Assembly (NCBI RefSeq): GCF_020005365.1
Contig: NZ_JACNML010000010.1
Location: 1-64,000 of the forward strand
Direction: 5' to 3'
DNA length: 64,000 nucleotides
DNA from: Kangiella shandongensis
GTDB taxonomy: Bacteria; Pseudomonadota; Gammaproteobacteria; Enterobacterales; Kangiellaceae
Positions 31,526-40,531 of this stretch are shown here, piece after piece. The notes beneath the pieces were generated by a model. That model was not told where the DNA came from, searched no databases, and saw nothing but the letters and a program-made list of their open reading frames with translations. Position numbers and translations under genes: made by a program. Every line of letters starts with the position of its first letter. Position 1 is the first letter of the stretch.

Positions 31526-32833
31526 TTAGGTTAAAGCTTTTAAACGAGTCTCAATTTCACTTAACTGTAAATTGCCACAAGCTCCCGGTGACTGTCGTTG
31601 CTCGATGGACGCCTTCGCCTTACGCTGCTCCAGCTCACCATAATTACTTTTTATGTGACGATAGGCATCGCGAAAAGCCATCCTCTCCTCAATAACCAGC
31701 TCCACGGCTTTATCGGTTGCAAACATTGCAGCCTCGACCGCCTGTTCGCTCTGCTGCAGATTGATGGTTAATGACTGCAGCAAAGCGGGTACCAAGGATA
31801 AACATTGCAACGAGGAGGAAGTTCCTTTCAATAAAGCTTCCTTAGTATTTTGCAGATCACGTTGATAACCACCGGGCAGCGATAACAAAGACTCCAGCTC
31901 GTTGTAACACCCCACTAACTTGGCATATTCCGCCCGCATTAACTCAACCGCATCAGGGTTGTGTTTATTGGGCATAATGGATGAGCCGGTACTGAAGTCA
32001 TCCCCAACCTCGACAAAATTATATTCTGCGGTTGAGAATAAGCTCAGGTCCCAGGCCATACGGCGCAAATCCAATAACGCATTTTTAAAACACCCCAGCA
32101 CCTGTAGCTCAATCTTGCCACGACTGTTCTGCACGTACATCGGATTAATCTGCTGACGGTTAAAACCCAAAGCCCGGGTCGTATGCTCTCTGTCCAGTTC
32201 CAGATTCACCCCATAGCCAGCTGCAGTGCCCAGTGGGTTACTGTTGATTAATTCAAACGTCTGCGCGGCAGCCATGGCGTTATCACAGAAAGCCTCGGCA
32301 AACGAGGCAAACCACAATCCCCAGCTGGAAACGACGGCACGTTGTAAATGGGTATAGCCTGGCAGAACATCGAACTCATGTTTTTTGGCCAGCTCTAAAC
32401 AAGTGCTGGCGATGTCCAGGCAACTTATCTTCAACTGCTTTAATGACTCGCGACAATATAGTCTTGTGGCGACAGAAACCTGATCATTCCGACTACGGCC
32501 TGTGTGAATTTTCTTTCCTACTTCCCCCAACTGCTCAGTCAAATACCACTCAATCGCTGAGTGCCCATCCTCAAACCGCGTATCGAGAACAAACACTCCC
32601 TGCTCAAAATCATCACTTAACTGCTGTAGACAGTTTATAATCTGTTGCAACTCATCCTTCTCTAAAACACCTATATGGTGCAACCCTTCCGCATGGGCTT
32701 TACTGGCCTGTATATCGAATAGCAAAATTTGTTGATCGAGAATAACGTCACGACCGGACATAAACTGATTAATTTTTGATTGTAAATCAGATGTGTTTTG
32801 TTGAGACTTTTTACTCCAAAGAGGCTGTGTCAT
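31526..32833 (-). CDS. argH: Argininosuccinate lyase
   Basis: ArgH splits argininosuccinate to arginine and fumarate. The protein of 435 residues has the family stretches LPGYTHLQRAVVSSWGLWF, the signature GSSIMPNKHNPDAVELMRAEYAK with the mobile catalytic Ser loop, and GRSRNDQVSVATRLYCRE. ATG at 32833 (MTQPLW) is preferred over the GTG at 32842, as AGGTGGG sits just upstream. It is the last gene of the arginine operon. No terminator hairpin is obvious after it. Confidence 0.95.
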   Translation of the reverse strand: MTQPLWSKKSQQNTSDLQSKINQFMSGRDVILDQQILLFDIQASKAHAEGLHHIGVLEKDELQQIINCLQQLSDDFEQGVFVLDTRFEDGHSAIEWYLTEQLGEVGKKIHTGRSRNDQVSVATRLYCRESLKQLKISCLDIASTCLELAKKHEFDVLPGYTHLQRAVVSSWGLWFASFAEAFCDNAMAAAQTFELINSNPLGTAAGYGVNLELDREHTTRALGFNRQQINPMYVQNSRGKIELQVLGCFKNALLDLRRMAWDLSLFSTAEYNFVEVGDDFSTGSSIMPNKHNPDAVELMRAEYAKLVGCYNELESLLSLPGGYQRDLQNTKEALLKGTSSSLQCLSLVPALLQSLTINLQQSEQAVEAAMFATDKAVELVIEERMAFRDAYRHIKSNYGELEQRKAKASIEQRQSPGACGNLQLSEIETRLKALT

Positions 32834-32842
32834 TTTACCCAC

Positions 32843-33775
32843 CTATTGCAAGTCAATGCCTGCCAGCAGAGGAAGCTGGAAAGCTAAATTAATGTTTTGT
32901 ATCGCCTGCGTCGCCGCACCCTTGAGTAAATTATCCAAAGAGCAGTTTAAAGCTAAGTGTCGTCCATCTTTTGACAGCTCCCAGCCGCCGACAATGGCGG
33001 AATGTTGGTGCGCTACCTGGCTGATCTGAGGTACATCTTTTTGTACAGCAATCAAATCCTTATCCTGATAAAATTTCTGATATATTTTTTCGACCGCAGT
33101 TAGGTCTAGACGCGCCTTCAGCGGTATATGACTGGTCAGGCTGATCCCACGAAAAAAACCGGCGACATGAGGAGAAAACTTGATGCCCGTATCCAAGTGT
33201 CTCGACACCTCTTGCTCATGCAGATGCTCAGCGAGTTTGTACGGCATAATATTATTGACCAACAGTAACGGATTATTCTTATCCGAAGGTGTGGTACCGG
33301 CCCCGCTATAACCAGAGATACCAAAGCAACTGATCTGTCCATCGATAAGCTCCCTGACAGGAGCAATACTCAGCTGCATTGCCGTAGCATAACAACCTGG
33401 GTTGCTGATGCGTTTTGAAGTTTGATGACCGTATACTTCAGGCAGTCCATAACACCAGTTGTCATCAAACCGATTGTCAGCACTCAAATCGAGCACAACC
33501 GTTTCTGGACAATGCTGCTCAACTGCATCAACAAATTTATGCGACAAACCGTTCGGTAAAGCCAGCACCACCACATCGGGTTTCAGTTCGATCACTTCAT
33601 CAACCGATAACTGCTGATAGGCAAGTGGAAACTTGTGATATCCTTCAATCTTCTGTCCAGCTAACTCCCGTGAACTGGCTGCGGCCAAATCAACCGCAGG
33701 ATGGTTGGATAACATACTGATAAGTTCATGCCCAACATAACCTCTCGCTCCGATTAACACAGCTTTAATTGACAT
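32843..33775 (-). CDS. argC: N-acetyl-gamma-glutamyl-phosphate reductase
   Basis: ArgC reduces N-acetylglutamyl phosphate. It has the Rossmann start AVLIGARGYVGHELISML, the catalytic Cys in ISNPGCYATAMQLSIAP and SGYSGAGTTPSDKNN. ATG at 33775 gives 310 residues and is preferred to the ATG at 33784 because AGAGGA then lies about 8 bases upstream. Either start overlaps the 3' end of the kinase/synthase gene, which points to translational coupling. Confidence 0.95.
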   Translation of the reverse strand: MSIKAVLIGARGYVGHELISMLSNHPAVDLAAASSRELAGQKIEGYHKFPLAYQQLSVDEVIELKPDVVVLALPNGLSHKFVDAVEQHCPETVVLDLSADNRFDDNWCYGLPEVYGHQTSKRISNPGCYATAMQLSIAPVRELIDGQISCFGISGYSGAGTTPSDKNNPLLLVNNIMPYKLAEHLHEQEVSRHLDTGIKFSPHVAGFFRGISLTSHIPLKARLDLTAVEKIYQKFYQDKDLIAVQKDVPQISQVAHQHSAIVGGWELSKDGRHLALNCSLDNLLKGAATQAIQNINLAFQLPLLAGIDLQ

Positions 33776-35096
33776 TACTAGCATCCTCTTCTACCAACGT
33801 TTTACCTCTGCTCGAAGCAGCCTCAACACAAGACTTAATTTCGTCGTAATCAGTAAGCCCTGTCCAATAGACATTCCAGTGACCAGACTTAATAAAGCCA
33901 TCGGCTACCACGGCGTAAAATTTATTAATGGGATTGGTGATATAGGCACGCCAGAATAACTTTTTATGGTTCCTCACCACCTTGTCCCATAAAGCTCGAC
34001 CAACACCCTCACCTTTTGCTTTTTGGCTGACAACAAACTTATCCAGATAAGGGACTTCATCATCACCGGATAACACAATGGCTGCACGATAGCATTCGGT
34101 AACGTAAACTTTATGCAGGTTAAAATCACTGAAATAATTCGGTACCAAAGACCGTCCAAAAGATGATTCAATTAATGCTCTAAGTTTATCCCTATCGATC
34201 AGGCTCCACTTATCTGCAACGATGGCTTTTTCCCCCATATTGACCAGAGTACCGGAGCCTTTATCGGTAAATAATTCTTTTGCTAATAATTGCGGCTTAG
34301 TGATTGAGACTGAAGTTGCCGCAGGTAAAGCCTCTAAAATATCTTTAATCATCTCCAACTTTAATTTCATACCAGAATGAACCCAGCTTCGTTTGATCAA
34401 GTAAGAATAGTTATTAACGATACTGATATTGGGAATAACCTGATTGTCTTGATCTAACACGCCACCCGTTTCTGTTAGGAAAATAATCTTATATGGCTGA
34501 ACCGTTTTAGCCAGACTGAAGGTTGCCACATCGGCATTGAGGTTAACTATCTGCCCTTCTTCGGTTTCACCCAAAGGACTGACGACCGGCACTCGTCCCT
34601 TGCCGACAGCTTTCAGAAGCTGTTCGACAACAACCGACGTGACACTTCCAACAAGACCAAGTTGCTTTTCATCTTGTAGTTCACAATTAAAAACGCCGGA
34701 ATAGAATGACGTCGCATCGACTCCAGTTTCTTTTAAGCGAGAGGTCAGATTATGATTTTCATCGATAAAAACTTCACGCGCGGCTTTTAACACTTTCGGG
34801 GAGGTGACCCGGTGACCATCTACAAAATCTGAATCAATACTATGCTCTTTCAAGTATTGATTTAACTGTGGGCCTGCGCCATGTACCACTATCGGTGTTA
34901 AGCCAACCTGCTTTAAAAAGGATAGTGACGTTACCAGATTATCCATTTCCTCTTTTAGAATTTCCCCACCAACTTTTATGACGGCAAACTTTAATCCTTC
35001 TTCCGAAGAGAACCGTTTCAAATACTTACGGATCTGGGTTTCGCTATCGATGACGCTCAATAATTTATAAACGGTATCTTTGACTTGACTACTCAT
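33765..35096 (-). CDS. argB: Bifunctional N-acetylglutamate kinase / N-acetylglutamate synthase
   Basis: The 443-residue protein joins an acetylglutamate kinase domain (about 30-285: FAVIKVGGEILKEEMD, PIVVHGAGPQLNQYL, VVSPLGETEEGQIVNLNAD) to a C-terminal GNAT domain (about 300-435: YRAAIVLSGDDEVPYLDKFVV and AKGEGVGRALW, the acetyl-CoA loop). This is the NAGS/K fusion known from Xanthomonas and Maricaulis, which does the first two steps and is feedback-inhibited by arginine. It explains why no separate argA is present in the operon. It overlaps both neighbours. Confidence 0.93.
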   Translation of the reverse strand: MSSQVKDTVYKLLSVIDSETQIRKYLKRFSSEEGLKFAVIKVGGEILKEEMDNLVTSLSFLKQVGLTPIVVHGAGPQLNQYLKEHSIDSDFVDGHRVTSPKVLKAAREVFIDENHNLTSRLKETGVDATSFYSGVFNCELQDEKQLGLVGSVTSVVVEQLLKAVGKGRVPVVSPLGETEEGQIVNLNADVATFSLAKTVQPYKIIFLTETGGVLDQDNQVIPNISIVNNYSYLIKRSWVHSGMKLKLEMIKDILEALPAATSVSITKPQLLAKELFTDKGSGTLVNMGEKAIVADKWSLIDRDKLRALIESSFGRSLVPNYFSDFNLHKVYVTECYRAAIVLSGDDEVPYLDKFVVSQKAKGEGVGRALWDKVVRNHKKLFWRAYITNPINKFYAVVADGFIKSGHWNVYWTGLTDYDEIKSCVEAASSRGKTLVEEDASNVN

Positions 35097-36168
35097 GACT
35101 CAATATTCTCCAGTAGTGCCCAAGCACTTGCTCTAGCTCATCGATTGCAACCCACTCATTCGCCGTATGAGCTTGCTCGATAGATCCTGGGCCGAAAACG
35201 ATGACCGGATAATCGGCAGCGGAAAATAACGCCGCCTCCGTCCAGAAGTTAACCGGCGGACTGATATCCAGACCCAGTTTCTTCGCCAGTTTTTCATTTT
35301 TACCCAAGTTGTTATGACTCGGTAAGGATGGCGCATTAAATCCTTCCGTAACCTGTTCAAGGTTAAGACCTGTTGCAGCAACAAGCTCGTGAAGTAATCT
35401 GGAGGTATCGACCTCAGGCAAAGGCCTTAAGCCGAACTTTATATCAGTCTGAGGAGCAATCACATTGGGTTTGATTCCACCCTGCAAGTGACCAATGTTG
35501 AAACAGGTTCCCTGTAAGCAATCGTATGTATCTGCCAACTTATCTTCCGCCCAACGAATCGCTTTGCTCATCCAGCTTGCTGCCTGATGATTAGCATTCT
35601 CTTTTAACGCTCTTGGCTCAGAACTATGGCCGCTTTGCGCCGCAAAGGAGACGCTGGCGGTAACGATACCGCGATGCGCCAATACCGCTTTTGCCTGCGT
35701 CGGTTCGGCAACGATCACCCCCTGGTAATTGTGAGACTGTTTTAAAAACGATTTAATACAAAGGCTGCTGCCATGCTCTTCATCCGATGAAAACAGTACG
35801 GCGTAATCATCCGCCCCAGCTTCGATACAGGCCAACATACAGGCTGCCGCCCCTTTAATGTCGCACGCTCCAAGAGCCACCAGCTTTCCATCACTTTGAT
35901 GTAACGTGAACGGATCGGTTTGCCAGCCATCGGTGACCGGCACTGTATCGATATGATAGTTAAATAAATATTCAGGCTGACCTTTTGTCGCCAGAACATT
36001 GATCGAACCATCGCCATAGTCCGTAACCTTGATATCGGCTCCTGGAAGGCACTCCTGTAAGTATTCAACAATCCCCGAGTCTTTAATTTGTCTCGGGGGG
36101 TTGGTGGTATTAAACGACACCAGACTCTGCAAATGTTTTTTAACTTGTTCAATATTCGGCTTTGTCAT
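35089..36168 (-). CDS. argE: Acetylcitrulline / acetylornithine deacetylase (M20 family)
   Basis: The 359-residue enzyme is an M20 zinc peptidase. It has FNYHIDTVPVTDGW (His-Asp zinc and catalytic pair), GACDIKGAAACMLA, LFSSDEEHGSSLC (Glu residues) and the dimerisation region with VTASVSFAAQSGHSSEPRALKENANHQA. Because the operon encodes an acetylornithine carbamoyltransferase, the likely substrate is N-acetylcitrulline, as for Xanthomonas ArgE'. The substrate is inferred from context. The ATG overlaps the argG stop. Confidence 0.9.
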   Translation of the reverse strand: MTKPNIEQVKKHLQSLVSFNTTNPPRQIKDSGIVEYLQECLPGADIKVTDYGDGSINVLATKGQPEYLFNYHIDTVPVTDGWQTDPFTLHQSDGKLVALGACDIKGAAACMLACIEAGADDYAVLFSSDEEHGSSLCIKSFLKQSHNYQGVIVAEPTQAKAVLAHRGIVTASVSFAAQSGHSSEPRALKENANHQAASWMSKAIRWAEDKLADTYDCLQGTCFNIGHLQGGIKPNVIAPQTDIKFGLRPLPEVDTSRLLHELVAATGLNLEQVTEGFNAPSLPSHNNLGKNEKLAKKLGLDISPPVNFWTEAALFSAADYPVIVFGPGSIEQAHTANEWVAIDELEQVLGHYWRILSHE

Positions 36169-37382
36169 GACACACCTTCCTGCTGATGTACCGAAGCCCA
36201 GGTTGCTGTGCTTTGGCCGAGCAACTTAATAAAGCCACTCGCTTCTTCAATACCCCAGGGCGCTTTCTGCGCATACTCAACATCACTTGATACCAGCATA
36301 GCCGGAGCAGTCACCGCCACAGCTTCCACCTGTCCAGGACTTAGTTTTAGCGTCACCTGGCCCGTCACATTCTGCTGTGATGATGCTAGATAACTGTGCA
36401 AGTCATGAGCTAAAGGATCAAAATAGAACCCCTGATAAACCAGCTCGATCCATTTTTTAGCGACAAGCGGTTTAAAGTGATTTTGCTGCTGGGTAGTCAC
36501 CACTTCCTCTAACGCTTTATGCGCTTTCAGTAACCCAATTAGCGCAGGGGCTTCGAAAACAATCCGTCCTTTTAAGCCGATAATGGTATCGCCAGTGTAA
36601 ATATCCCGGCCGATACCAAAACTCCCTAATTGTTTATTTAATGTTTGCATTAGGGTTACGCCGGGCATGATTTCTTCATTAATACTGACTAACTCGCCCT
36701 GCTTAAATTCCAAGGTGATTTTTTCTGATGCTTTATTGATTGACTCAGTGGGCTGAGTTAACACATAAGTATCATTCTTTGGCTCCTGCCATTTATCGAT
36801 CTCACCACCAGAAATGGTGACACCCAATAAGTTTTCATTAATGCTATAACTCTTATGCACGACAGAGACTTCATGTCCTTTCTGGCTTAAATAATCGATC
36901 TCGTATTGCCGGACATCGGTAATGTCTTTCTGAATATCCCGAATCGGTGAAAGGATGGTGTAATCACCCAATGCCTTAATCGACAGATCAAAACGCACCT
37001 GATCGTTGCCCATACCGGTACAACCATGTGCCACAAACTTTGTGCCCAGTTTTTGACACAGCTGCACAGCTTCCTGAGCAATTAAATAACGATCAGCGCA
37101 TAGCACTGGATACTGATCCTGATACATCGAATTACCCCAGACCAGAGGTTTGATAATGGTTTGCCACAGGGCTTTCTGGGCATCGATAGTCCAGTGCTTT
37201 TCTGCTCCGAGAGAAAGTGCCGTTTGCTCAATCTGCTCGACCTGCTTATGAGGAACGCCGCCGGTATTCACAAAAAGCGTATGAACCTCAAAGCCTTTAT
37301 CAATCAGGTACGGCACACAGAAGCTGGTATCCAGGCCACCGGAAAATGCTAAAACTACTTTATCTTTATTCACAACAGTCAC
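36165..37382 (-). CDS. argG: Argininosuccinate synthase
   Basis: ArgG joins citrulline and aspartate with ATP. The 405-residue protein has KVVLAFSGGLDTSFCVPYL (P-loop of the PP-ATPase fold) and VAHGCTGMGNDQVRFDLSI. The sequence belongs to the group found with Xanthomonas-type arginine operons rather than the enteric ArgG. It begins 1 base after the carbamoyltransferase stop and overlaps the deacetylase gene by 4 bases. Confidence 0.95.
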   Translation of the reverse strand: MTVVNKDKVVLAFSGGLDTSFCVPYLIDKGFEVHTLFVNTGGVPHKQVEQIEQTALSLGAEKHWTIDAQKALWQTIIKPLVWGNSMYQDQYPVLCADRYLIAQEAVQLCQKLGTKFVAHGCTGMGNDQVRFDLSIKALGDYTILSPIRDIQKDITDVRQYEIDYLSQKGHEVSVVHKSYSINENLLGVTISGGEIDKWQEPKNDTYVLTQPTESINKASEKITLEFKQGELVSINEEIMPGVTLMQTLNKQLGSFGIGRDIYTGDTIIGLKGRIVFEAPALIGLLKAHKALEEVVTTQQQNHFKPLVAKKWIELVYQGFYFDPLAHDLHSYLASSQQNVTGQVTLKLSPGQVEAVAVTAPAMLVSSDVEYAQKAPWGIEEASGFIKLLGQSTATWASVHQQEGVS

Positions 37383-37383
37383 C

Positions 37384-38385
37384 CTAAACTTTATTCATTA
37401 ATGTATTCATAATCGATTTTTGTACGTGCAAACGATTCTCCGCTTCCTGAATCGCAATACAGTTTTCGGAATCCACCACGCCATCGGTGGCTTTAATATT
37501 TCTTCTCAATGGTAGACAGTGACTGAATAAGGCATTGTTGGTCTTTGCCATTTTCGCTTCGTCTACCATAAAGTGTTTGTATTGATCACGAATGGGCTTT
37601 TCTTTTTCCCATTGACCGAAATAAGGCAGTGCGCCCCAGCTTTTGGCGTAAACGACGTCGGCCCCCTCGTAGGCAGTATCAATGTCATGCGTTACCGTCA
37701 GCTCCTGTCCATGGGCCTGACTGTAAGACTGTCCCAGTTGCATATAGTGAGGATCCAACAAGTACTCTTCGGTTGGACATAACAGGGTCACGTCCATACC
37801 GAACTTCGTCGCGATCAATAATGACGAGTTAGCCACGGCAGTATTTAAAGGTTTGGGGTGATAGGTCCAGGTCAGCACATACTTCTTACCTTGCAAGTCG
37901 CCCAGCTGTTCCTGCAGCGCCATGACATGCGCCAACTCCTGACACGGATGCGTAATGGTTTCCATGTTAATGACAGGTACCGAGGCATAGTTGGCCAAGG
38001 CCGTTATCAGCTTATCCTGCCGATCATCCTGCCAATTGTGGAATTTTGGAAATGCCCGCACGGCAATCATGTCACAATAGGCTGACAGCACCTGTGCGAC
38101 TTCACTGATGTGTTCTTCGGCTTCGCCATCCATAACGGAGCCAAGCTCAAACTCAATCGGCCAGGCATCTTTGCCCGGCTGAAGAACAACGACTTGTCCA
38201 CCCAGTTGATGCACACCCAGCTCAAAACTGGTACGAGTCCGCAATGACGGATTAAAAAACAGTAGCGCAACAGACTTTTCTTTCAGCAAAGGCTGAAACT
38301 TGTGCTTCTTTAAACTTCTAGCAAAGTCGACCATCTCCTGCAGTGATGATTGCGACCAATGCTCCGTCGTTAAAAAATGTTTCAT
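37384..38385 (-). CDS. argF': N-acetylornithine carbamoyltransferase
   Basis: The 333-residue enzyme carbamoylates N-acetylornithine to N-acetylcitrulline. It has the carbamoyl phosphate motif as FFNPSLRTRTSFELG, then HPCQELAHVMALQEQ, the AOTCase stretch TWTYHPKPLNTAVANS and HCLPLRRNIKATDGV with the Lys known to be carboxylated in the Xanthomonas enzyme. These differ from ordinary ornithine carbamoyltransferase (SxRTRxxFE with a DxxxSMG loop). It is the first structural gene after the attenuator, and ACAGGTAAC precedes its ATG. Confidence 0.95.
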   Translation of the reverse strand: MKHFLTTEHWSQSSLQEMVDFARSLKKHKFQPLLKEKSVALLFFNPSLRTRTSFELGVHQLGGQVVVLQPGKDAWPIEFELGSVMDGEAEEHISEVAQVLSAYCDMIAVRAFPKFHNWQDDRQDKLITALANYASVPVINMETITHPCQELAHVMALQEQLGDLQGKKYVLTWTYHPKPLNTAVANSSLLIATKFGMDVTLLCPTEEYLLDPHYMQLGQSYSQAHGQELTVTHDIDTAYEGADVVYAKSWGALPYFGQWEKEKPIRDQYKHFMVDEAKMAKTNNALFSHCLPLRRNIKATDGVVDSENCIAIQEAENRLHVQKSIMNTLMNKV

Positions 38386-38435: not shown

Positions 38436-38463
38436 AAAAAAACCCAGCCGATGGCTGGGTTTT
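38436..38463 (-). terminator. Attenuator terminator of the arginine operon
   Basis: On the minus strand, AAAACCCAGCC and GGCTGGGTTTT form an 11-bp stem with a 3-base loop, followed by a run of seven T. It lies 28 bases after the leader peptide stop and 50 bases before the first structural gene. A copy of its right-arm sequence, GGCTGGG, occurs upstream at 38500-38506 and can pair with the left arm to form an antiterminator. Confidence 0.9.
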
Positions 38464-38490
38464 AAATTCTTTAGTGAGTTTCTTAAGGCA

Positions 38491-38580
38491 CTAACAATTC
38501 CCAGCCGGCATAATTCGGCTGCGACGTCGTTGTTGTACTGAGTTGCTAGCGGCAACTACTGTTAATGTCTTAAAATTCAT
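38491..38580 (-). CDS. Putative arginine leader peptide
   Basis: A 29-residue ORF opens with ATG at 38580 and ends with TAG at 38491. It carries Arg codons CGA, CGT and CGC at residues 18-20 and CGA at residue 22 (Arg-Arg-Arg-Ser-Arg), a density not expected by chance. The ORF stops 28 bases before an intrinsic terminator ahead of the arginine operon. The segment 38516-38520 (AGCCG on the minus strand) can pair with 38503-38507 (CGGCT), and 38500-38506 (GGCTGGG) can pair with the left arm of the terminator. This is the arrangement of classical attenuators. The ribosome site is weak (GAAGAG, rather far upstream). Confidence 0.8.
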   Translation of the reverse strand: MNFKTLTVVAASNSVQQRRRSRIMPAGNC

Positions 38581-38610: not shown

Positions 38611-38653
38611 TCAGTTCGATTGTGAATTTACAGGCTAATTTTCAGCCTGTAAA
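38611..38653 (-). promoter_or_regulatory. Candidate promoter of the arginine operon with a 10-bp inverted repeat
   Basis: On the minus strand TTTACA (38653-38648) is followed after 17 bases by TAAATT, a possible promoter about 40 bases upstream of the leader start. A perfect inverted repeat, TTTACAGGCT at 38627-38636 and AGCCTGTAAA at 38644-38653, overlaps the -35 and spacer. It does not match the ArgR box consensus and could be an operator for another factor. Promoter strength and role are unproven. Confidence 0.4.
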
Positions 38654-38782: not shown

Positions 38783-40531
38783 ATGAACCCTTCAAAGCAC
38801 AAACTAGTAGCCTTGTTTGCTATTCACAGCGCCATGCTCTCGGCATGTAAAACTACGTCTTCCTATACGAATCCGGACAACCAGCTGAAAATGGAGCTGG
38901 TGGCCCGTTACACCTCCGGCCAATTCGGGGAAGGCGCGGCCGAAGTACTAGCATATGATAAACAGCGACAATCGCTGTATGTGGTTAACGGTGCGGCTAA
39001 GGCTATTGATATTATTCCGCTGTCTAAAATGCCGACCACTAAGTTATCACTGCCTTACACCGGTAGTAACCTCGCCAGTCAGCGACTGGAACTACCCATA
39101 TCTATTAGTACAGCAACTCAACAGGACATTGCGCTGGGCAGTCCTAATTCGCTGGCGATTCACGATAATACGCTAGCGGTAGCAGTAGAAAATAAAAACA
39201 AGCAAAAACAAGGCGTTGTACTATTTTACTCGCTCAGCGGTGGGCAACCAGCATTGAGCAAAGCGGTTTCCGTTGGCGCACTACCGGATATGGTCACCTT
39301 CTCTCATGACGGCAGCAAGGTCCTGGTTGCGAATGAAGGCGAACCAAGCAAAGACTATAAGCAGGATCCTGAAGGCTCAGTGAGTATCATCATGACGGCA
39401 CCAAGAATTGCTAACGAAGCAATCACGCTTGGCTTTACCGCCTTCAACTCACAACGCGACAACCTGATGGCAACCGGCGTTAAATTTGCTTGCCCGCAAA
39501 CGACCACAGTTGCTCAGGATCTGGAACCAGAATACATCACAATAAGTCCCGATGATTCCACAGCCTTTGTCAGCCTGCAGGAAAACAATGCCATGGCCGT
39601 GGTCGACCTGCAATCCTTCTCTATCAAGTCGGTAAAAGGGTTAGGTTATAAAGATTGGAACCAGTACTCGATTGATGTCAGCAATAAAGATGGCATTAAC
39701 TTAAGCCGCTACGAAAACTTATACGGTCTTTATCAGCCAGACTCTTTAGCCAGCTATCAGGTCAACGGCAAGACTTACATCTTGAGTGCAAACGAAGGCG
39801 ATGCACGCGAGTATATTTATGAGGCTACTGAGGCTGAATGTAAAGCGGCCGGCCATAAGTACGACGATGAAGATGGTTGTATCAGCTACACGGAAGAGTT
39901 TCGCGCGAAAAAACTTTCTATCAAATCACCGTCCATTATTGATTCCTATTACCAGAAAGACGGTATTGGTCGTTTAAAAGTCACCAATGTTTTAGGCGAT
40001 GAGGACGGCGATGGCCTCTACGAAAAACTCTACAGCTTCGGTGCTCGCTCGTTCAGTATCTGGTCACCCGATGCCGAACTGGTCTATGACAGTGGCGATG
40101 AGTTCGACCGAATTCTGCTGGAACATCATGGCGATAACTTCAACAATAACGAGTCTGAAAATAAAGGCGATAACCGTTCTGACGACAAAGGTTCTGAGCC
40201 GGAAGCAATCACCGTTGGCCAAATCAATGGCCGCCCTTATGCTTTTATCGGACTTGAACGCCAGGGCGGCATTATGGCCTACGACATCGGCCAACCGCAT
40301 GCTCCTAAATTTTCTGGCTATACCATTAACCGGAACTTCGATCTGGAGTTTGAAATAGACGACGATACCAGCCCGGTCTCGTTATCAGGAGACTATACCA
40401 AGGTAGGAGATCTGGCGCCTGAAGGACTGACCTTTATTGACGCAGAAACGAGTCCAAATGGTCAGCCATTGTTAGCTGTAGCTAATGAAGTGAGTGGCAG
40501 CGTTTCTATTTATCAACTATCGGCCCCTTAA
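38783..40531 (+). CDS. Choice-of-anchor I family lipoprotein (beta-propeller-like)
   Basis: The 582-residue precursor has a lipoprotein signal with Cys at residue 22 (LSACKT). The body resembles choice-of-anchor I proteins of marine bacteria, with repeats like KQRQSLYVVNGAAKAIDII, DMVTFSHDGSKVLVANEGEPSKDY and EYITISPDDSTAFVSLQENNAMAVV, each a blade-like YVTN-type repeat, and a conserved ILSANEGDAREY. A hydrophilic Asn/Asp/Lys-rich linker lies near residues 454-473. The biochemical role is unknown; homologues are often named alkaline phosphatase-like. It is a single gene, divergent from the arginine operon. Confidence 0.8.
   Translation: MNPSKHKLVALFAIHSAMLSACKTTSSYTNPDNQLKMELVARYTSGQFGEGAAEVLAYDKQRQSLYVVNGAAKAIDIIPLSKMPTTKLSLPYTGSNLASQRLELPISISTATQQDIALGSPNSLAIHDNTLAVAVENKNKQKQGVVLFYSLSGGQPALSKAVSVGALPDMVTFSHDGSKVLVANEGEPSKDYKQDPEGSVSIIMTAPRIANEAITLGFTAFNSQRDNLMATGVKFACPQTTTVAQDLEPEYITISPDDSTAFVSLQENNAMAVVDLQSFSIKSVKGLGYKDWNQYSIDVSNKDGINLSRYENLYGLYQPDSLASYQVNGKTYILSANEGDAREYIYEATEAECKAAGHKYDDEDGCISYTEEFRAKKLSIKSPSIIDSYYQKDGIGRLKVTNVLGDEDGDGLYEKLYSFGARSFSIWSPDAELVYDSGDEFDRILLEHHGDNFNNNESENKGDNRSDDKGSEPEAITVGQINGRPYAFIGLERQGGIMAYDIGQPHAPKFSGYTINRNFDLEFEIDDDTSPVSLSGDYTKVGDLAPEGLTFIDAETSPNGQPLLAVANEVSGSVSIYQLSAP

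What the first reader, a model, noticed from the sequence alone, without database searches (positions are those of the whole stretch)
38436..38580. Putative ribosome-mediated arginine attenuator ahead of the acetylcitrulline operon
Seen: a 29-codon ORF with Arg codons at positions 18, 19, 20 and 22 (CGA CGT CGC AGC CGA), then a stop, then an 11-bp GC-rich hairpin with seven T, then the operon. Segment 38500-38506 on the minus strand (GGCTGGG) repeats the right arm of the terminator and can pair with the left arm, and 38516-38520 can pair with 38503-38507 to compete. A ribosome stalled on the Arg codons would cover 38516-38520, free the GGCTGGG segment and form the antiterminator; a ribosome that finishes would allow termination. 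Known: gammaproteobacterial arg genes are normally controlled by ArgR; attenuators of this type are well known for thr, his, leu, ilv, trp and phe. An arginine version in this clade would be new to my knowledge.
Basis: partly seen in the sequence, partly recalled or inferred. Interest (0 to 1): 0.88.

Follow-up and report, generated by a model that had tools for sequence, protein, structure and literature searches.

The report
Arginine attenuator replacing the ArgR repressor
Ahead of the arginine-making genes of the marine bacterium Kangiella lies a tiny arginine-rich gene and an RNA switch, kept in relatives and in xanthomonads, that very probably lets the ribosome itself sense arginine shortage, in bacteria that mostly lack the usual arginine repressor.

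Summary
On the minus strand, 38580-38491 is a 29-codon leader ORF with Arg codons 18, 19, 20 and 22. Behind it lie region 2 (38506-38500), region 3 (38461-38453) and an 11-bp terminator with seven T, then argF'-argG-argE-argB-argC-argH. The same layout precedes argF' (AOTCase) in the 23 genomes of 61 relatives that have it. A second form, peptide ...GMTSRARRP...AG, precedes it in 65 of 80 contig loci, mostly Xanthomonadales. In both forms antiterminator and terminator survive compensatory changes, and the Arg codons sit where a stalled ribosome frees region 2. Leader Arg codons are almost only CGU, CGC, CGA. ArgR is found in 1 of 61 attenuator-bearing genomes tested, but in 8 of 8 class-sample genomes with a distant AOTCase-family gene and no attenuator. 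Kangiella his leaders have the same layout with His codons. Rfam's "sRNA Xoo5" overlaps the xanthomonad leader. My searches found no printed arginine-biosynthesis attenuator of this type; Salmonella speF/orf34 is a known Arg-codon leader that works otherwise. I found no expression data for Kangiella; sensing of charged tRNA-Arg is inferred.

The parts
38625..38653 (-). Predicted promoter TTTACA-17-TAAATT
   Evidence: 9 of 12 matches; TTTAC motif in the corresponding place in 12 of 12 Kangiella loci (pattern chosen after seeing the sequences); no mapped start
38491..38580 (-). Leader ORF, 29 codons, MNFKTLTVVAASNSVQQRRRSRIMPAGNC
   Evidence: equivalents
38515..38529 (-). Regulatory Arg codons CGA CGT CGC (AGC) CGA
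   Evidence: Arg run in all 24 K-type leaders
38516..38521 (-). Region 1, CAGCCG, can pair with 38507-38502
   Evidence: not supported by covariation in the family
38500..38506 (-). Region 2, GGCTGGG (codons Ala-Gly), left arm of antiterminator
38453..38506 (-). Antiterminator hairpin: GGCTGGG with CCCAGCC (38459-38453), inner stem TTAGTG 38494-38489 with CACTAA 38476-38471
   Evidence: folding; covariation of the outer stem (K-type; X-type)
38453..38461 (-). Region 3, AACCCAGCC, shared by antiterminator and terminator
38436..38463 (-). Intrinsic terminator: 11-bp stem 38463-38439 and seven T 38442-38436
   Evidence: covariation
37384..38385 (-). argF', N-acetylornithine carbamoyltransferase (AOTCase), first gene of the operon
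   Evidence: NF003384 572.3 bits against a cut-off of 288
31526..37382 (-). Rest of the operon: argG 36165-37382, argE 35089-36168, argB (acetylglutamate kinase family, PRK04531) 33765-35096, argC 32843-33784, argH 31526-32842

Best explanation
It is a ribosome-mediated transcription attenuator that responds to arginine. Transcription starts upstream of 38580 and the leader ORF is translated as it is made. With enough charged tRNA-Arg the ribosome passes the Arg codons and reaches the stop next to region 2; region 2 is masked, or pairs behind the ribosome with region 1, so 3:4 forms and transcription stops at about 38436. When charged tRNA-Arg is short the ribosome stalls on codons 18-20; region 1 is covered, region 2 is free and pairs with region 3 before region 4 is made, and the operon is transcribed. 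Shown by sequence: the parts, their conservation, mutually exclusive helices with compensatory changes, geometry, absence of an ArgR match. Inferred: transcription start, translation in Kangiella, stalling, termination and the signal (charged tRNA-Arg).
For: Conservation: model R1 scores 57 bits or more in exactly the 23 genomes of 61 that have AOTCase and at most 44.7 bits in the others; 22 of R1's 24 rows come from these genomes, so the added information is that no other genome scores as high. One leader-plus-terminator test passes 24 of 24 K-type loci, 63 of 65 X-type loci and 0 of 6 AOTCase loci without a called leader. Covariation: 2:3 helix 95.8% of cells paired in 24 K-type leaders with 3 pairs changed on both sides, 89.6% in 63 X-type leaders with 15 double-change cells, reached by 0 of 500 shuffles; 3:4 helix 100% in both, 12 and 37 double-change cells. 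Geometry: with an Arg codon in the A site the free downstream RNA forms 2:3 with P > 0.5 in 24 of 24 K-type and 59 of 64 X-type leaders (4 not evaluable, 1 failed). Specificity: leader Arg codons 101 of 101 (K) and 194 of 196 (X) are CGU/CGC/CGA. Ten R1 matches of 33-45 bits fetched from other Kangiella are all leaders with 4-6 His codons (hisG downstream verified in L170). No ArgR match: 23 of 23, 33 of 34, 4 of 4. The upstream neighbour at 38783 is divergent, so the terminator has no obvious upstream gene to serve.
Against: No expression data for Kangiella. At equilibrium the full leader folds into the terminator whatever the ribosome position (P 0.99), so antitermination must be kinetic. 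When RNA behind the ribosome was also allowed to pair, the antiterminator had P of 0.02, 0.00, 0.64 and 0.06 at codons 18, 19, 20 and 22; only the usual treatment with downstream RNA alone gives the clean result. With no ribosome at all, 2:3 still has P > 0.5 in 7 of 24 K-type and 40 of 60 X-type leaders, so an untranslated leader is not predicted to terminate in most X-type cases. The low P at the stop codon follows largely by construction; in 6 of 24 K-type leaders the stop is 18-21 nt beyond region 2, at or past the edge of what a ribosome covers, and in 11 of 60 X-type leaders the stop comes 8-17 nt before the end of region 2. Two stricter covariation measures (number of pairs or of pair types) do not clearly exceed shuffles for 2:3 (41 and 452 of 500; 340 and 322 of 500). 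Helix 1:2 is not better than shuffles. The leader has no obvious Shine-Dalgarno sequence. L052's genome has both attenuator and ArgR (a 5.9-Mb metagenome bin).
Confidence: 0.9

Rival explanations
1. Nascent-peptide arrest: the leader peptide itself, not only tRNA charging, makes the ribosome stall, perhaps with arginine or an intermediate as ligand, and the attenuator reads that stall.
For: In 62 distinct X-type leaders A..A.GMTSRARR is held at the amino-acid level (one exception, a His for the second Arg) while synonymous sites vary outside the Arg block (Thr 62 of 62 with all four codons): pN/pS 0.018 for SRARR, 0.32 for the nine codons before, 0.98 and 1.2 in flanking blocks.
Against: Stalling with free arginine would favour the antiterminator in excess, the wrong sign for a biosynthetic operon, unless stalling needs low arginine. 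In K-type leaders the N-terminal peptide varies and the Arg run is kept. Nucleotide constraint acts on the same codons: synonymous change is also low in SRARR (pS 0.19 against 0.46-0.48 around it).
Confidence: 0.2
2. A protein repressor or another signal at the promoter is the main control and the leader only sets basal level.
For: A 9-bp inverted repeat TTACAGGCT-GAAAATT-AGCCTGTAA overlaps the predicted promoter at 38653-38625 (by eye).
Against: No ArgR match in the genome. None of 11 ARG-box-like sites with up to 3 mismatches in the window lies near the promoter (consensus recalled). The outer arms of the repeat are not kept in the other Kangiella loci (by eye). It would not explain the conserved Arg codons.
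Confidence: 0.12
3. The leader RNA is mainly a trans-acting small RNA, as the xanthomonad form is filed (RF02242 Xoo5).
For: sRNA-Xoo5 was cloned, 5'-RACE mapped and seen on Northern blots in X. oryzae (PMC3039613 passages). Rfam lists it as 'Gene; sRNA'.
Against: The RNA lies on the leader ORF, whose peptide is constrained, and region 2 covaries with region 3. The 6 matches lie ahead of argF', but in loci that were chosen for argF', so this last point is weak.
Confidence: 0.04
4. An ordinary terminator and a chance Arg-rich ORF.
For: Terminators with such stems are common (one search lists many weak matches).
Against: No upstream gene apparent on this strand; 0 of 200 random windows; present in 23 of 23 AOTCase relatives.
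Confidence: 0.01

Closest known systems
his operon attenuator (and thr, leu, ilv, trp, phe leaders) of proteobacteria
   Same: Leader ORF with cognate codons, region 2 near the stop, 2:3 antiterminator against 3:4 terminator; ten fetched Kangiella his leaders with 4-6 His codons have the same layout.
   Different: Cognate amino acid is arginine, and it stands where ArgR is missing. Rfam leader families do not match (best Phe_leader 23.3 bits against a gathering score of 55).
Salmonella speF leader, orf34 (PMC6386406, abstract and passages)
   Same: A gammaproteobacterial leader ORF whose consecutive Arg codons sense low arginine by ribosome pausing.
   Different: It controls ornithine decarboxylase, not arginine synthesis; it works through Rho and RNase G, the paper found no intrinsic terminator, and it uses AGG CGG codons.
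Rfam RF02242, Xanthomonadaceae sRNA Xoo5 (PMC3039613, passages)
   Same: It overlaps the xanthomonad form of this leader: 6 of 15 X-type loci tested pass the gathering score.
   Different: Filed as an sRNA gene. Its 3' end, carried over to L093 (5870), lies 28 nt before the first T of the terminator tract. No match in the window or in the 2 Kangiella loci tested.
ArgR repressor and ARG boxes
   Same: Control of the same genes by arginine in most gammaproteobacteria.
   Different: No ArgR match in 60 of 61 attenuator-bearing genomes tested.
carA leader of Pseudomonas aeruginosa (as cited in PMC4997734, passages)
   Same: A leader peptide and possible attenuation ahead of a gene shared by arginine and pyrimidine synthesis.
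   Different: Attenuation there is ascribed to pyrimidines; arginine acts through ArgR at the transcriptional level.
Arginine T-boxes (named in PMC1262725, passages)
   Same: RNA control that reads tRNA-Arg charging.
   Different: T-boxes bind the tRNA directly without a leader peptide (general knowledge); no T-box family hit here.

Membership tests
Ribosome-mediated transcription attenuator | Short ORF with cognate codons of the operon's end product | tested here: met
   4 Arg codons in the window, runs of 3-5 in the 24 K-type leaders; arginine operon
Ribosome-mediated transcription attenuator | Two mutually exclusive hairpins, antiterminator and intrinsic terminator, kept by compensatory change | tested here: met
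   two stricter measures do not exceed shuffles for 2:3
Ribosome-mediated transcription attenuator | Stall position frees region 2, completed translation masks it | tested here: met
   in silico only, downstream RNA alone; exceptions 6 of 24 K-type and 11 of 60 X-type for the stop position
Ribosome-mediated transcription attenuator | Pause/protector helix 1:2 | tested here: inconclusive
   present in window; 74.3% of cells, not beyond shuffles
Ribosome-mediated transcription attenuator | Leader ORF is translated | tested here: inconclusive
   X-type: pN/pS 0.018 in SRARR; K-type: Arg kept with varying third bases; no ribosome profiling
Ribosome-mediated transcription attenuator | Transcription starts upstream of the leader and terminates at the attenuator in excess | not testable with these tools
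   TTTAC motif 12 of 12 Kangiella; 5' RACE in X. oryzae from a paper
Rfam amino-acid leader families (Phe_leader and others) | Score over gathering threshold | tested here: not met
   best 23.3 against 55
RF02242 Xoo5 | Score over gathering threshold | tested here: not met
   not met in the window nor in L028, L042; met in 6 of 15 X-type loci
ArgR regulon | ArgR encoded in the genome | tested here: not met
   no PF02863 match in G000; control rings in 8 of 14 genomes
speF orf34 leader | Ahead of ornithine decarboxylase, Rho and RNase G dependent, no intrinsic terminator | tested here: not met
   ahead of argF' with intrinsic terminator; Rho and RNase G not testable

The most novel reading that the evidence does not exclude
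Two gammaproteobacterial lineages with the acetylcitrulline pathway have given up ArgR and put arginine synthesis under an arginine attenuator of one architecture with two kinds of leader. In Kangiellaceae it is a plain run of CGU/CGC/CGA codons read by one tRNA-Arg, while in Kangiella the operon's own genes shift to CGG, AGA and AGG so that they can be translated when that tRNA is empty. In Xanthomonadales it is a conserved peptide, GMTSRARRP, that adds nascent-chain stalling, on a nearly leaderless RNA now filed as sRNA Xoo5.
Probability: 0.3. Interest if true: 0.82.

Novelty: new variant of a known kind. Interest (0 to 1): 0.7.

Why it matters
Arginine synthesis in gammaproteobacteria is the textbook case of control by the ArgR repressor. 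Here is what looks like a natural replacement of a DNA-binding repressor by a translation-sensing RNA switch, with both states found in genomes that carry AOTCase-family genes. It would add arginine to the amino acids that drive classical attenuation of their own synthesis, explain an orphan xanthomonad RNA (Xoo5), and offer a test of the selective-charging theory of leader codons (PMC1183508, passages) in a six-codon family with three isoacceptors.

Tried and rejected
T-box, riboswitch or other Rfam family: none over threshold. An Arg leader at carA: 30 loci scanned, 1 (L206) unresolved; Arg-run ORFs turned up in 10, mostly at -79, which I take for carA's own coding start because my script chose a late Met; they were not tested for terminators. 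Spread across the class by R1: in 369 genomes only the window scores high; the rest are 38.9 bits or lower. One of these, G465 at 35.5 bits, proved to be a true X-type leader ahead of argF', and the three other X-type genomes of the sample were not among the listed matches, so R1 is nearly blind to X-type. A model of X-type was not built. Helix 1:2 as a conserved part: not supported. Codon avoidance in the arg operon: holds in the window (34 of 67 against 181 of 655 Arg codons are CGG/AGA/AGG, p = 2e-4) and in 6 of 6 other Kangiella loci tested, but in none of 10 Xanthomonadales loci tested (of 65), where the sign is opposite (5 of 10 at p < 0.05), so it is not a general feature. An automated best-score sigma-70 scan gave no common promoter within or outside the genus; the TTTAC motif was chosen after seeing the sequences. 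In the window's own genome the two further R1 matches that I fetched (L177, L178) are not his leaders and look like plain terminators; its his leader was not examined.

Literature: nine searches of the open library, six of them aimed at arginine attenuation, showed no arginine-biosynthesis attenuator in the listings. I saw passages only, by word search, of PMC2965389 (main text holds 'arginine' 0 times; its supplements were not seen), PMC5343134, PMC4997734, PMC8632094, PMC3039613, PMC7694677 (no hit for Xoo5, arginine, attenuat, leader peptide or ornithine; 35), PMC1865377, PMC1183508, PMC1262725, PMC6386406 and PMC6000758. Vitreschak et al. 2004 on proteobacterial attenuators is not held (recalled; seen only as a reference) and was not read. 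Most subscription papers are outside this library.

Full report
What is there. The window lies in a genome whose closest AOTCase loci are from Kangiella (genome G000, 2.80 Mb). On the minus strand, six genes for arginine by way of acetylcitrulline run from 38385 to 31526: argF' (NF003384, 572 bits), argG, argE, argB (acetylglutamate kinase family PRK04531), argC, argH. The upstream neighbour at 38783 is divergent, so no minus-strand gene is apparent whose end the terminator could serve. The leader folds far better than shuffles (z = -5.74). One ORF in the window has three Arg codons in a row followed by a terminator; 0 of 200 first-order Markov windows have one.

Conservation in the family. 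AOTCase is present in 23 of 61 relatives, the window's genome included. In the 22 of these whose upstream region is held, an Arg-run leader precedes the gene, usually by 100-200 nt, in L022 by about 430 nt. In G012 the gene sits at a contig end and the leader at another contig end (C42). A covariance model R1 of 24 leaders (the window, 21 relatives, L035 and L052) scores 57 bits or more in exactly the 23 AOTCase genomes and at most 44.7 bits elsewhere. I call these K-type: RRRS in Kangiella, RRRR or RRRRR in most others, followed within a few codons by region 2 (GGCTGGG, Ala-Gly, or a variant) and a stop. Third bases of the Arg codons vary.

A second form. Of the 80 best AOTCase loci in genome contigs (of 235 found), 7 are Kangiella that duplicate loci (L029 cut off), 2 more are K-type (L035, L052), 65 carry another leader with the peptide ...SARMAAGMTSRARRP....AG or a close variant (X-type; 64 extracted by script plus L090, whose terminator that script missed), and 6 have none (L037, L039, L044, L047, L085, L087; planctomycetes and alphaproteobacteria by title). 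One common leader-plus-terminator test passes 24 of 24 K-type, 63 of 65 X-type (not L056, L083) and 0 of the 6. X-type loci are mostly Xanthomonadales by title; others are bins without a genus, and L068 is labelled Rhizobium. On an AOTCase tree of 58 proteins (18 K, 34 of the 65 X, the 6 without) K and X each form one clade (support 97/88 and 99/98; midpoint root).

Structure. In A1 (24 K-type) the 2:3 helix has 95.8% of cells paired, 3 pairs and 6 cells changed on both sides; the 3:4 helix 100%, 12 double-change cells. In A2 (63 distinct X-type) 2:3 has 89.6% and 15 double-change cells; 3:4 has 100% and 37. Double-change cells are reached by 0 of 500 shuffles in all four. The number of double-change pairs and of pair types is not clearly above shuffles for 2:3 (41 and 452 of 500; 340 and 322 of 500) and only marginally for 3:4 in A2 (27 and 27 of 500; in A1 83 and 500). 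Sliding the partner by 1-3 columns lowers paired cells to 14-67%. So region 3 is held to pair with two partners. Helix 1:2 is not beyond shuffles. In the window the antiterminator is worth -16.0 and the terminator -16.5 kcal/mol.

Ribosome positions. Folding only the RNA downstream of a ribosome whose A site is on an Arg codon, before region 4 exists, gives P(2:3) > 0.5 in 24 of 24 K-type and 59 of 64 X-type leaders (4 not evaluable by the script, L041 failed). The low value at the stop codon is largely by construction; the stop lies 18-21 nt past region 2 in 6 of 24 K-type and 8-17 nt before its end in 11 of 60 X-type leaders. With no ribosome, 2:3 keeps P > 0.5 in 7 of 24 K-type and 40 of 60 X-type leaders, so these are not predicted to terminate untranslated. 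When upstream RNA may pair too, the picture in the window is mixed, and at equilibrium the complete leader is always terminated; the mechanism needs the usual kinetic reading.

The signal. Arg codons in the first six codons from the run are CGC, CGT or CGA in 101 of 101 (K; the run was found by a CGN pattern, so AGR in its first three codons is excluded by selection, CGG is not) and 194 of 196 (X; 2 CGG). The genome has tRNA-Arg with anticodons ACG, CCG and TCT among the 30 tRNA loci scanned, of 37 tRNA matches; by general knowledge ACG (inosine) reads CGU, CGC and CGA. The leader would therefore report one isoacceptor. In Kangiella the operon's genes lean to the other two: 34 of 67 against 181 of 655 (p = 2e-4) in the window and the same in 6 of 6 further loci (p 4e-7 to 3e-3), but not in 10 Xanthomonadales loci, where the sign is opposite. 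Selective charging of isoacceptors is the published theory for such choices (PMC1183508, passages). The operon is also poor in Arg, 2.9% against 4.7% in 35 other window ORFs.

What replaced what. ArgR (PF02863) matches in 24 of 61 relatives and in none of the 23 AOTCase ones (p = 2.4e-7). Among 40 genomes chosen from my other loci, it is in 1 of 34 attenuator-bearing ones (L052's, a 5.9-Mb metagenome bin) and 1 of 6 without. In an evenly drawn class sample of 369 genomes, NF003384 matches 13: the window, 4 X-type not seen before (L241-L244), and 8 more distant family members in which I found no Arg-rich ORF with a terminator (the first script, missed 7 of the 8). ArgR is in 0 of the 4 and 8 of the 8. 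In all: 1 of 61 with, 9 of 14 without the attenuator (p = 1.5e-7; species are related and many are bins of unknown completeness, so p overstates). The 7 Kangiella genomes without an AOTCase match have neither ArgR nor a strong R1 match; K. profundi is reported to lack the arg cluster and to need arginine (PMC6000758, passages).

An internal comparison. Ten R1 matches of 33-45 bits that I fetched from other Kangiella are leaders with 4-6 His codons; the downstream gene looks alike in all and was verified as hisG in L170. Related genomes thus use the classical his attenuator with the same layout, and the arginine one differs by its codons. In the window's own genome the two further matches fetched are not his leaders.

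The xanthomonad RNA. Rfam RF02242, 'sRNA Xoo5', matches 6 of 15 X-type loci tested on the leader. In X. oryzae it was mapped as 124 nt (5' end by RACE, 3' end by the clone), with Northern bands of about 130 and 100 nt (PMC3039613, passages). Carried over to L093 its 5' end falls 2 nt before the leader AUG, so the leader mRNA there would be nearly leaderless. Its 3' end falls 28 nt before the first T of the tract, and an RNA ended at the tract would be about 157 nt, so Xoo5 is not a direct map of the terminated end; a trimmed product or a short clone would explain it. That Xoo5 lies ahead of argF' in X. oryzae itself I infer from the matches.

The X-type peptide. Over 62 distinct leaders A..A.GMTSRARR is kept (one His for the second Arg) although Thr uses all four codons: pN/pS 0.018 (SRARR), 0.32 (nine codons before), 0.98 and 1.2 on either side; pS itself is reduced in SRARR (0.19 against 0.46-0.48), so the RNA is constrained too. 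That argues for translation and hints at a part for the nascent chain.

Verdict. The missing piece is an experiment.

Noticed in passing
L169-L176, L179, L180 (middle of each locus): His-operon leaders of Kangiella with 4-6 His codons, same layout as the arginine leader; hisG verified downstream in L170.
   Followed up: partly
window 38625-38653: A 9-bp inverted repeat TTACAGGCT-GAAAATT-AGCCTGTAA overlaps the predicted promoter; its outer arms are not kept in other Kangiella.
   Followed up: partly
window 31526-38385: The arg operon shifts its Arg codons to CGG, AGA and AGG and is poor in Arg; same codon shift in 6 other Kangiella loci, opposite sign in 10 Xanthomonadales loci.
   Followed up: yes
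L093 5747-5870: Rfam sRNA Xoo5 overlaps the xanthomonad argF' leader; its 5' end is 2 nt before the leader AUG, its 3' end 28 nt before the terminator's T tract.
   Followed up: yes
L052 (genome G094): The only attenuator-bearing genome found with ArgR, a 5.9-Mb metagenome bin; could be mixed.
   Followed up: no
L068: A contig labelled Rhizobium whose AOTCase groups with Arenimonas and carries the X-type leader; likely a binning error.
   Followed up: no
L246-L253 (genomes G140, G386, G373, G117, G466, G218, G333, G266): Distant AOTCase-family genes with an ArgR match within about 5 kb in each.
   Followed up: partly
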